Shown here piece by piece: positions 57,284-60,309 of a stretch of 64,000 nucleotides of DNA (positions are counted from its first letter, which is position 1; every line of letters begins with the position of its first letter). This stretch comes from Oceanicaulis sp. HLUCCA04 (GTDB lineage: Bacteria; Pseudomonadota; Alphaproteobacteria; Caulobacterales; Maricaulaceae), in the NCBI GenBank assembly GCA_001314625.1, contig LJSH01000001.1:186001-250000 (forward strand). The letters run 5' to 3'. The translations under genes were made by a program, and so were the position numbers. The notes under the pieces were generated by a model that saw only the letters and a program-made list of their open reading frames with translations, was not told the origin of the DNA and searched no databases.

Positions 57284-57298
57284 GAACAATATGTGAAC
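57284..57298. promoter_or_regulatory. LexA/SOS box of alphaproteobacterial type (GAAC-N7-GAAC)
   Basis: GAACAATATGTGAAC, reverse complement of GTTC-N7-GTTC, in the divergent uvrA/ssb promoter, 37 nt before the ssb ATG. Confidence 0.8.
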
Positions 57299-57334
57299 AT
57301 TTACAGAAAAAGCACAAGCGTCAAGAGGCATCCC

Positions 57335-57814
57335 ATGGCAGGCAGCGTCAACAAGGTCATCATTATCGGCAATCTGGGTGCAGACCCGGAGGTGAAGGCC
57401 ATGCCGTCAGGCGACCGGATGGCCAAATTCCCCGTCGCGACGTCAGAGAACTGGCGCGACAAGTCCACCGGCGAGCGCCGCGAGAAGACCGAATGGCACA
57501 ACGTGGTCATCTTCAACGAGAACCTGGCCAAGATCGCCGAGAACTATCTCAAAAAAGGCGCCAAGGTTTACATTGAAGGCTCGCTTCAGACCCGCAAATG
57601 GCAGGACCAGAACGGACAGGATCGCTATTCCACCGAGATTGTGCTGCAGAAATATCGCGGCGAGCTGACCATGCTGGACGGCAAGGGCGAAGGCGGCGGC
57701 TCCGGTGGTGGCGGTAATTATGGCCGCATGGATGACCGCTCCGGTGGCGGCGGCAATGACCGGCCGCGCGAAAGCTTCGCCTCCGACACGCTGGACGACG
57801 ATATTCCGTTCTAA
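57335..57814 (+). CDS. ssb: Single-stranded DNA-binding protein
   Basis: [43 protein letters not shown] ... C-terminal DDDIPF. Confidence 0.97.
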
Positions 57815-57847
57815 AGGTAAGCTCCTGAACGCAAATCGGGGAAAAAC

Positions 57848-58876
57848 ATGATCGAGATTTTTTCGACTGACAAAGACGAGGTGATTCGTAGTTTGGTTGC
57901 CACTGGGCGGGTAAAATATGAATTCGCACTCGAAAACCTTCTTCCCCTACTAGACAGGTTTGGGGAACAGAGGAAAAAACAATCCCGGAGCTTCTACACG
58001 CGTCTAAAAGCAGATATAATTACAGGGTGCATTATGCCCCCAATAACTTTGGCGTTTGTGAATGACAACTTCGACTATGATATGCCCAAAAATGAAGTTC
58101 GAGAATTTGTGACGCGCCACATCTCGTCTGGATATATATTAGACGGCCTTCAGAGGTTAAATACTCTCAGTGAAGCCGCCGAGGCAGAAAACTTCGATAA
58201 AGATCGATCCCTACATTTAAACATTATTATTGCAAAAAAATATGATCTTCTTTTGTATCGAATGATCACTTTGAATAATGGGCAAAAGCCGATGACGGCT
58301 CGCCATCAAATAGAAATGCTAACGCGCGGTGCGATTGACTTATCTGGATTTTCGCTTCCCGTTGCGACTGAGAAAGAAACAGAAGGAACGAAGATTCCAG
58401 GTGCATTTAGGATGTCCGATATAGTTGAAGCTTATACAGCTTATCTTGCAGACAATGTAAACAATCAGAATAAAAAAATAATCGAGAGCAAGCTTGATGA
58501 AATTTTAGTGGGCAGAGTCATGGATTCTGATCTCACCGAGACCAACGTGAGCTTCTCTCAAATATTGAGTGAGGTGGAGAGGCTAAGTGCCGTTCCAGAG
58601 AATAAGGAATGGTTCCGACAGGTGAACAATCTGATTGGATTTACTGTAGGCGCTAAGCGGTCAATATCGTTTATAAGCATATTTTCTCCTGAAAAATTTT
58701 GTTTGCAAGTTGAAAAGTTCGACAAAGCGTTCAGTTCAATTAATCCATCGAAAGTCAATGTGGGCAAATTCCGCCGAGAACTGGCAGCATTCTTTTTCAA
58801 GGAAATTGATAAATTTCATACAGACGATTTGGGATCGGTTGAGGCAGCCTTTTTCGAGCAGACGTTGACTGAGTAA
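57848..58876 (+). CDS. DGxQR-motif protein, DUF262/DGQHR (ParB/Srx-like) family candidate
   Basis: SGYILDGLQRLNTLSEA and RMITLNNGQKPMTARHQIEML resemble the vlDGqQRltTL and 'fxxlNxgxxpl' segments of DUF262/DGQHR families; AT-rich. Confidence 0.6.
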   Translation: MIEIFSTDKDEVIRSLVATGRVKYEFALENLLPLLDRFGEQRKKQSRSFYTRLKADIITGCIMPPITLAFVNDNFDYDMPKNEVREFVTRHISSGYILDGLQRLNTLSEAAEAENFDKDRSLHLNIIIAKKYDLLLYRMITLNNGQKPMTARHQIEMLTRGAIDLSGFSLPVATEKETEGTKIPGAFRMSDIVEAYTAYLADNVNNQNKKIIESKLDEILVGRVMDSDLTETNVSFSQILSEVERLSAVPENKEWFRQVNNLIGFTVGAKRSISFISIFSPEKFCLQVEKFDKAFSSINPSKVNVGKFRRELAAFFFKEIDKFHTDDLGSVEAAFFEQTLTE

Positions 58877-58883
58877 CCGGCCA

Positions 58884-59780
58884 ATGCCTTGTTCATTTAA
58901 AGTTCTAGAGCCAGTTGCTGGCGATTCGGTGTCGGAACCGTTTGGGGTCGGGGGTCATGGCGTTCCGGCATTCGAGTGTGTACGAATGCTCGCTGGTTCT
59001 ACCGACTTGGAATCTAAGAAGTCTGGAGCTTCGATTAAACTTCGATATTGTCACTTTACCCAAAAGCAACGCCGACCTAATGACGGTACGATTTCCGATA
59101 TAATTGACCTGGCTTTTGAAGGAGAGCTGACACGTGAGGAAGTTGGGCAATTTCTCACGAAGTCTAAGTCAGATAATTTTCAATTTTGGGAAGAACTCAA
59201 ATCGGAAATAGGTTTATGCCTATTTGCTTTAAAGATGAAGCGCCATACCGAGTCATTTTTATATATTTATAGAACTTTCGAATTAATAGCGGTTGCTATG
59301 CCTCTTATTTATGCATCGAGAGTTAGTGATTTTCGATCGTCTGTGCAATTTATAAAGTCATTGTCACGTAATGATAGAGATCAGGACCTCTCGATTTTGA
59401 AGTATTTTACCGAGGAGTTTGTTAAGCGTGAATCAATGTTTGCTCACCTACATATAGATTATAGTTTTTCTAGTCTTGGTGCTTCGGCGGGTGAGATGAG
59501 GGATCAACTTAAAAGTTATGTGCTGGCGCCAAATAAAATTCATCATGAGTTTTTTGATGTTGAAGAAGAGGGTGTAAAAATTAAGTTTAGTGCGGTGCCT
59601 TCATTTGTGGCGGCATCACGTAATAGGCTGTTCCATAATGCGTTGTCGAATGATAATTTTAAGATAGATGCTTTGTCGGGCGCAGATTCGGTGTGTGAAG
59701 TGCTGGTTAGGCCAAGTATTTATTTCTTCAGTTTATTGCTAATTGAAATACTTAAGGTCCAGGCAAAAAGGTACATATAA
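58884..59780 (+). CDS. HEPN-motif protein candidate (possible RNase toxin/effector)
   Basis: C-terminal helical segment FVAASRNRLFHNAL containing Rx4H; 7 nt after the preceding gene; alternative start ATG at 58986. Confidence 0.5.
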   Translation: MPCSFKVLEPVAGDSVSEPFGVGGHGVPAFECVRMLAGSTDLESKKSGASIKLRYCHFTQKQRRPNDGTISDIIDLAFEGELTREEVGQFLTKSKSDNFQFWEELKSEIGLCLFALKMKRHTESFLYIYRTFELIAVAMPLIYASRVSDFRSSVQFIKSLSRNDRDQDLSILKYFTEEFVKRESMFAHLHIDYSFSSLGASAGEMRDQLKSYVLAPNKIHHEFFDVEEEGVKIKFSAVPSFVAASRNRLFHNALSNDNFKIDALSGADSVCEVLVRPSIYFFSLLLIEILKVQAKRYI

Positions 59781-59919
59781 AACTGAGCGACTGGTGGCAG
59801 GCTCGCGGTCGGGTTTTCCTGGAGCCGCTGAACGCGCCTGTCCGGGCTGATATCCGCTTTACAGCCCGATACTGCGCACGCCATGGTGTCGCCTGAATTT
59901 ATTGAGCGGGGGACTATCC

Positions 59920-60309
59920 ATGAATCGCCAGAGCTACACAGCCGAACTCCTGACCATTGTCGGGTCACTGCCCGAGGCCAACCGGCCGGGCTTCATCTCC
60001 GCCTTCCAGGCATCGGAGAAGAACCCAGTCTTGCTCTACGGATTTAATATCTGGCTGGGTTTTCTGGGCATTGACCGGTTTCTTGTCGGTGACATTCTGG
60101 CCGGTGTCCTCAAGCTGATCACGTTTGGCGGGTTCGGTTTGTGGGTGCTGATCGACTATTTCCTGATTGGCAGCAGAACGCGCCAGAAGAATATCGAATA
60201 TGCCCGCCAGCTGCGCGATTCCTTCTCGAACCGGGGCAATCAGTCTCCGCAAGTGGCTGCGCCTGCGCCGGCCGCGTCTTCAGAGGCTCCGCCACCGGCT
60301 GACGGCTAG
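59920..60309 (+). CDS. TM2 domain protein
   Basis: FNIWLGFLGIDRFLVGDILAGVLKLITFGGFGLWVLIDYFLI. Confidence 0.9.
   Translation: MNRQSYTAELLTIVGSLPEANRPGFISAFQASEKNPVLLYGFNIWLGFLGIDRFLVGDILAGVLKLITFGGFGLWVLIDYFLIGSRTRQKNIEYARQLRDSFSNRGNQSPQVAAPAPAASSEAPPPADG

What the first reader, a model, noticed from the sequence alone, without database searches (positions are those of the whole stretch)
57848..58876. Standalone DGxQR protein resembling DUF262/DGQHR without an HNH nuclease tail
The protein contains ILDGLQRLNTL, followed about 50 residues later by MITLNNGQKPMTARHQIEM. This layout matches the DGQQR and 'lNxGxxPl' segments of DUF262 (GmrS/D-type) and of DGQHR proteins such as DndB, all assigned to the ParB/Srx-like fold. 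No C-terminal DUF1524/HNH-like motif is visible, so effector activity may reside in the partner gene.
Basis: partly seen in the sequence, partly recalled or inferred. Interest (0 to 1): 0.68.

Follow-up and report, generated by a model that had tools for sequence, protein, structure and literature searches.

The report
Two-gene Dazbog-like defence cassette
A bacterium has picked up a compact two-gene cassette, probably against viruses, in which one protein of a known nucleotide-binding sensor type is always paired with a second protein that looks like an RNA-cutting toxin; it is a divergent cousin of the little-understood Dazbog defence system and suggests how that whole group could work.

Summary
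ORF 57848-58876 encodes a 342-aa protein with DGLQR (99-103) and LNNGQKPM (142-149); D, G, Q, R and N-x-G-Q are invariant in 46/46 relatives. It has no DUF1524/HNH tail. It matches DzbA, the DUF262-like subunit of the Dazbog phage-defence system (PADLOC, E=6.5e-50), though it lies in a distant clade of its own (37 sequences, 7 phyla). The gene 7 nt downstream (58884-59780) is its constant partner. It has no database match, but every complete relative carries Y-x3-E and R-[N/H]-x3-H, the latter the HEPN ribonuclease signature. Y-x3-E and R-x4-H are also invariant in real DzbB proteins, and a profile comparison aligns them in register (E=1.6e-5). Same-genus genomes show an empty site: a 2.03-kb, 40% G+C cassette sits exactly behind ssb in a 63% G+C window and holds only these two genes. 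Relatives sit on plasmids, in prophages and sometimes beside restriction-modification genes. Best reading: a Dazbog-like anti-phage module in which a ParB/Srx-type nucleotide-binding sensor controls a HEPN RNase. Catalysis, trigger and complex formation are inferred. New variant of a known kind.

The parts
57293..57814 (+). ssb (single-strand DNA-binding protein), host gene at the left border of the insertion
   Evidence: ORF list; homologous in all 5 same-genus genomes tested; named from its sequence
57815..59850 (.). inserted two-gene cassette (about 2.03 kb), absent at the same site in same-genus genomes
   Evidence: BLAST against L047/L048: homology stops at 57813 and resumes at 59850/59851 with only a few to about 20 bases between; G+C 41%/40% for the two genes versus 63% for the window
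57848..58876 (+). gene A: DzbA-like DGxQR (DUF262-like, ParB/Srx-type) protein, 342 aa; proposed sensor/regulator
58136..58168 (+). ILDGLQRLNTL motif (residues 97-107) of gene A
   Evidence: D/G/Q/R invariant in 46/46
58262..58318 (+). MITLNNGQKPMTARHQIEM motif (residues 139-157) of gene A
58884..59780 (+). gene B: 298-aa HEPN-like partner, divergent DzbB counterpart; proposed RNase effector
59256..59282 (+). F-x3-Y-x3-E motif (FLYIYRTFE, residues 125-133) of gene B
   Evidence: Y129 and E133 invariant in 33 homologues and in the DzbB set; merged 43/43
59619..59636 (+). RNRLFH (residues 246-251), HEPN-type R-N-x3-H motif of gene B
   Evidence: R246 and H251 invariant in 33/33 and 43/43 in the merged DzbB alignment
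59902..60309 (+). TM2-domain host gene at the right border of the insertion
   Evidence: Pfam TM2 1.4e-12; directly behind ssb in L058/L059

Best explanation
Genes A and B form a horizontally acquired two-gene anti-phage module of the Dazbog kind. Protein A is a ParB/Srx-fold (DUF262/DzbA-like) protein whose DGxQR and LNxGQxP motifs form a nucleotide-binding or hydrolysing pocket; it keeps protein B in check and senses infection, probably through modified phage DNA or a phage enzyme acting on DNA. Protein B is a HEPN-type, metal-independent endoribonuclease whose R246-N-x3-H251 is the active site. On sensing, A undergoes a nucleotide-driven change and releases or activates B, which cuts RNA and stops phage production, with cell dormancy or death as the likely cost. 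Shown here: the two genes are one linked, co-inherited, mobile unit; A belongs to the DzbA superfamily; B shares invariant HEPN-like motifs with DzbB. Inferred: complex formation, NTP use, RNase activity, trigger and outcome.
For: A matches DzbA at 6.5e-50. A partner homologue lies directly downstream in all 36 GTDB loci where the sequence continues, plus 7 plasmid loci and 8 of 10 prophage contigs. A and B distance matrices agree across 32 genomes (Mantel r=0.77, 0/5000 permutations). R-[N/H]-x3-H and Y-x3-E are invariant in B and R-x4-H and Y-x3-E in the DzbB set, aligned in register by hhalign at E=1.6e-5, against 0.03-0.19 for unrelated pairs. Standalone DzbB-like L045 matches Pfam HEPN_Apea over its own R-x4-H (0.0066). 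Empty sites and low G+C show acquisition of just these two genes. Neighbours of relatives include C5 methylases, HpaII, BrxL, HsdR, MvaI/BcnI and integrases. Literature: loss of the DUF262 gene abolishes Dazbog defence (PMC10952713) and phage methylases activate Dazbog (PMC12409349).
Against: The window's own partner matches no Pfam, PADLOC or NCBIfam model, including DzbB and all HEPN models. Its confident AlphaFold2 model (pLDDT 90) finds no HEPN structure in the PDB or BFVD by Foldseek. A profile comparison of B with a small set of HEPN_Apea/MAE_28990 proteins registers the motifs but is weak (E=0.033; 0.0053 merged with DzbB; controls 0.47-0.93). The long branch (5.66 changes per column) separates this clade from Dazbog-scored DzbA. 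Defence neighbours are present but not universal. No phage assay of this clade was found.
Confidence: 0.68

Rival explanations
1. A classical toxin-antitoxin pair: B is a HEPN RNase toxin and A merely its antitoxin, with plasmid or island maintenance as the main role and no specific phage trigger.
For: Two-gene operon with a HEPN toxin-like second gene; carriage on small plasmids and prophages; HEPN toxins are common in TA modules (PMC3710099).
Against: A is a DzbA relative with an invariant predicted nucleotide pocket and not a small labile antitoxin; the related Dazbog is an experimentally found defence system; R-M neighbours recur.
Confidence: 0.17
2. A DNA-targeting restriction-like system: A (ParB/GmrSD-like) binds modified or foreign DNA and itself nicks it, while B is a structural or DNA-binding subunit whose R-x4-H is not catalytic on RNA.
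For: DUF262 proteins in GmrSD, BrxU and SspE act with DNA nuclease domains (PMC10952713); C5 methylases occur nearby; ParB-like proteins next to HEPN genes were called nucleases in PMC3710099.
Against: No HNH/DUF1524 or other nuclease domain in A; the most strongly constrained residues of B include exactly the HEPN R/N/H set.
Confidence: 0.1
3. The module is not immune-related: a mobile two-gene regulatory unit with a housekeeping or selfish function unrelated to phage.
For: In many genomes the immediate neighbours are ordinary metabolic genes (Pfam tally); no phage test of this clade.
Against: Homology to Dazbog, HEPN-like motif, patchy horizontal distribution over 7 phyla, prophage and plasmid carriage, defence genes in a subset of flanks.
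Confidence: 0.05

Closest known systems
Dazbog (DzbA-DzbB), Millman et al. 2022; PADLOC PDLC03835/PDLC03836
   Same: Two adjacent genes in the same order; A matches the DzbA model (6.5e-50); B shares the invariant Y-x3-E and R-x4-H motifs with DzbB.
   Different: B is not detected by the DzbB model; A sits in a separate, strongly supported clade far from Dazbog-scored DzbA; both proteins are shorter (342 and 298 aa, versus 385-446 and 334-425 aa in the Dazbog-type loci examined).
GmrSD/BrxU/SspE (DUF262 + DUF1524)
   Same: DGxQR motif region and weak but above-control profile similarity; Foldseek neighbours include BrxU and SspE.
   Different: No DUF1524/HNH domain; the effector is a separate gene of a different type.
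DndB / DGQHR family
   Same: DGxxR plus an N-x-x-x-P segment at similar spacing; profile match E=2.7e-4 to a 5-sequence DndB set.
   Different: Weaker than the DUF262 match; no dnd genes seen nearby.
DUF262 or ParB-like gene next to a MAE_28990 or RiboL-PSP HEPN gene (Anantharaman et al. 2013); PD-T4-2 (DUF262 and HEPN)
   Same: Same logic of a DUF262/ParB-like gene paired with a HEPN gene; one example seen here at L071; noted in PMC3710099 and PMC10952713.
   Different: A different HEPN family and a different DUF262 branch; PD-T4-2 sequences were not compared here.

Membership tests
Dazbog | DzbA homologue by the PADLOC model | tested here: met
   PDLC03835 6.5e-50, 168.6 bits, best stretch residues 2-246
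Dazbog | DzbB homologue by the PADLOC model next to DzbA | tested here: not met
   no PDLC03836 match at E<=10 for P0002 or for two other clade members
Dazbog | Downstream partner remotely related to DzbB (shared invariant motifs, profile match) | tested here: met
   hhalign E=1.6e-5 with motifs in register; 43/43 R246, H251, Y129, E133 in the merged alignment
Dazbog | Phage protection requiring both genes | not testable with these tools
   needs a plaque assay
HEPN ribonuclease superfamily (gene B) | R-[N/D/H]-x3-5-H motif near the C-terminus of a helical domain | tested here: met
   RNRLFH 246-251 at the end of predicted helix 235-250; invariant R/H
HEPN ribonuclease superfamily (gene B) | Significant match to a HEPN profile or structure | tested here: inconclusive
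   no Pfam HEPN hit for P0002; Foldseek none; hhalign to a small HEPN set E=0.033, controls 0.47-0.93
HEPN ribonuclease superfamily (gene B) | RNase activity dependent on R/H | not testable with these tools
   biochemistry needed
DUF262 / GmrSD_N (PF03235) (gene A) | score above the Pfam gathering cut-off | tested here: not met
   19.3 bits against a cut-off of 33.2
DUF262 / GmrSD_N (PF03235) (gene A) | I/V/L-D-G-x-Q-R pocket motif | tested here: met
   LDGLQR; D, G, Q, R 46/46 in DzbA-type relatives
DUF262 / GmrSD_N (PF03235) (gene A) | ParB/Srx-like fold | tested here: inconclusive
   best Foldseek neighbours are ParB, BrxU, SspE and PadC but none reaches E<=0.001
GmrSD type IV restriction enzyme | DUF1524/HNH nuclease domain fused or adjacent | tested here: not met
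   no such domain in A or B

The most novel reading that the evidence does not exclude
The whole DzbA-DzbB superfamily, including Dazbog and this undescribed clade, is a family of nucleotide-gated RNases: a DUF262-type sensor without nuclease activity controls a HEPN RNase, so a DUF262 domain can be wired to RNA cleavage instead of DNA cleavage. This clade is a separate system type that two-gene defence-finding models miss because its effector is unrecognised.
Probability: 0.5. Interest if true: 0.72.

Novelty: new variant of a known kind. Interest (0 to 1): 0.58.

Why it matters
Dazbog's mechanism is described as unclear in the papers found (PMC12409349, PMC12926258). If DzbB and this partner are HEPN RNases, a point-mutant experiment becomes obvious (R/H of the RNxxxH motif in B; D/Q/R of DGxQR in A), and the DUF262 sensor domain would be shown to drive RNA-targeting as well as DNA-targeting immunity. 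The clade occurs in seven phyla, on plasmids and in prophages, and its effector is invisible to the DzbB model, so strict two-gene rules would miss it.

Tried and rejected
1) Ribonuc_2-5A hit of one clade partner (L015, E=3.7e-4) first looked like support for HEPN, but the match is at residues 68-92 and not on the RNRFFH motif, so it was discarded as chance. 2) Foldseek of the partner model against PDB and BFVD: only noise. 3) Sequence search of both profiles against PDB chains: no credible relative. 4) tblastn of A and of B in annotated phage genomes: no match; IMG/VR contigs did give ten. 5) Insertion hotspot behind ssb: the same-genus genomes show no defence cargo there by eye, so no hotspot claim. 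6) A methylase as a third system component: a C5 methylase-like hit within about 6 kb in 6 of 36 clade loci, not adjacent as a rule, so treated as defence-island context. 7) Own promoter or terminator for the cassette: no more matches than in shuffled sequence. 8) A bona fide GmrSD_N gene elsewhere in the genome: none.

Full report
OBSERVATION. The ORF at 57848-58876 (+) encodes 342 aa. ILDGLQRLNTL is residues 97-107 and MITLNNGQKPMTARHQIEM is residues 139-157. A 35-sequence alignment shows D99 G100 Q102 R103 and T141-T150 as invariant; over 46 DzbA-type proteins, including plasmid-borne Dazbog-like ones, D99, G100, Q102, R103, N143, G145 and Q146 are 46/46 and P148 is 45/46. The motifs are therefore real and constrained. 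Pfam gives only a sub-threshold GmrSD_N match (E=0.0014; 19.3 bits against a cut-off of 33.2) and no DUF1524/HNH.

WHAT GENE A IS. PADLOC places it with DzbA, of the Dazbog system (a DUF262-bearing system, PMC10952713), at E=6.5e-50. NCBIfam has nothing; PHROGs gives an unknown-function family. The relation is remote: in a maximum-likelihood tree the window protein and 36 relatives form a clade (support 100/99) separated from Dazbog-scored DzbA by a branch of 5.66 changes per column (the long branches make the exact rooting unsure). The clade includes Pseudomonadota, Bacteroidota, Balneolota, Bacillota, Cyanobacteriota, Verrucomicrobiota and Thermodesulfobacteriota, with a topology that does not follow the species, i.e. 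horizontal spread. Broad DzbA profiles match a DUF262 set at E=2.3e-5 and a small DndB set at 2.7e-4, aligning the DGxQR motifs, whereas unrelated profile pairs gave 0.03-0.19. An AlphaFold2 model (pLDDT 83) finds no PDB match at E<=0.001, but pNOB8 ParB, BrxU, SspE, ParB bound to nucleotides and PadC make up 12 of the first 23 neighbours. The ParB/Srx assignment is supported but not proved.

GENE B. The gene 7 nt downstream (58884-59780, 298 aa) has no match in Pfam, PADLOC or NCBIfam, and only a chance-level PHROGs hit. A homologue follows gene A in every one of the 36 GTDB loci where sequence continues (L018 runs off its contig; the genome locus L042 is frameshifted in B), in the seven plasmid loci with downstream sequence and in 8 of 10 IMG/VR contigs (L106 is truncated, L102 shows no intact partner). 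A and B distances correlate across 32 genomes (Mantel r=0.77; 0 of 5000 permutations reach it, maximum 0.25), so they travel and diverge together. B diverges faster than A (mean pairwise identity 26% versus 46%), yet R246 and H251 are invariant, N247 nearly so (one H), and Y129 and E133 are invariant. RN-x3-H at the end of a long helix (model pLDDT 90, pTM 0.90) is the HEPN RNase signature (established knowledge of the HEPN superfamily; the superfamily review is PMC3710099).

LINK TO DzbB. L037 and L038, genomes of the same order with Dazbog-scored DzbA, have partners that match PADLOC DzbB (2.2e-15 and 7.3e-7) and weakly Cas13a models, Cas13a being another HEPN RNase. In a 10-sequence DzbB-type alignment (including three proteins found without an adjacent DzbA) the invariant residues beyond M1 are F219, Y223, E227, R311 and H316, i.e. 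the same F-x3-Y-x3-E and R-x4-H with the same internal spacing. hhalign of the two alignments gives E=1.6e-5 and, with relaxed alignment confidence, brings both motifs into register. Merged, Y129, E133, R246 and H251 are 43/43. One DzbB-like protein matches Pfam HEPN_Apea across its own R-x4-H (0.0066). A direct comparison with a small HEPN set is weak (0.033; merged 0.0053; controls 0.47-0.93). My reading is that B is a divergent DzbB and that both are HEPN-type; the first part is well supported, the second moderately.

GENOME CONTEXT. In two same-genus genomes (L047, L048) homology to the window stops at 57813, at the ssb stop codon, and resumes at 59850/59851 before the TM2 gene. None of the five same-genus genomes tested has DzbA or anything resembling this cassette there. 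The genes are 41% and 40% G+C in a 63% window. So the cassette is foreign, compact and complete with two genes. The system is rare: by the DzbA model 6 of 299 genomes of the order (4 of this clade) and 2 of 399 of the phylum, both counts including the window's own genome. Dazbog-type and clade relatives on plasmids sit beside HsdR (L060), MvaI/BcnI endonuclease and a C5 methylase (L061), and a C5 methylase (L065, L066). Among 130 neighbours of clade loci the most frequent Pfam families are phage integrase (5) and C5 methylase (4), with single HpaII and BrxL genes; a tblastn search with two C5 methylases finds hits in 6 of 36 clade loci. No matched control of random loci was run, so this is context, not a statistical enrichment.

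MECHANISM. Shown: one linked, mobile, co-diverging two-gene unit; A with an invariant predicted nucleotide pocket; B with an invariant HEPN-like site. From literature: deleting or mutating the DUF262 gene abolishes Dazbog defence, DUF262 domains of BrxU and SspE hydrolyse NTPs and gate a nuclease (PMC10952713), and phage methylases can activate Dazbog, mechanism unclear (PMC12409349). Inferred: A holds B inactive, senses phage DNA modification or a phage DNA enzyme, and through NTP binding or hydrolysis releases B to cut RNA. The main rivals are a plain toxin-antitoxin role and a DNA-targeting role.

NOVELTY. DUF262/ParB-like genes next to HEPN genes are already recorded: MAE_28990 and RiboL-PSP HEPN genes in operon with ParB (PMC3710099), and PD-T4-2 listed with both domains; one clean DUF262 + MAE_28990 pair turned up here (L071). 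Dazbog itself is known. New here are a separate, widespread clade whose effector the DzbB model misses, and the proposal that this partner and DzbB are one HEPN-type family. In the held library no paper found on Dazbog describes a HEPN DzbB; the original Dazbog paper is not held, so prior description cannot be excluded. Hence 'new variant of a known kind'.

Noticed in passing
L069:1450-2847 (-), own genome G000:C7:177898-178299: The same genome encodes an ApeA-like HEPN protein of 465 aa (RNKIVH) on another contig, over the Pfam HEPN_Apea cut-off.
   Followed up: no
L071:360-2070: A bona fide DUF262 gene (VVDGLQR, 363 aa) is directly followed by a MAE_28990-type HEPN gene (RNDIAH): a second, independent DUF262 + HEPN pairing.
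   Followed up: partly
L044:745-1995, L043:724-2073: DzbB-like proteins without an adjacent DzbA match Pfam MauJ (1.7e-7 for L044) over the region holding the R-x4-H motif, suggesting that MauJ may also be HEPN-like.
   Followed up: no
L042:331-1192 (-): In one relative the partner gene is split between two frames, i.e. a frameshift or assembly error, while gene A is intact.
   Followed up: no
L065:3063-5485 and L066:3060-5482: Near-identical stretches on plasmids of two Roseobacteraceae genera carry a Dazbog-like pair between a recombinase and a DNA cytosine methyltransferase gene.
   Followed up: no
L054:305-1120: Just upstream of a clade member lies an ORF with a TIR-like or nucleotide-binding look (KVFISHGRSKDWYEVQAHIE...), possibly another defence gene; judged by eye only.
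   Followed up: no
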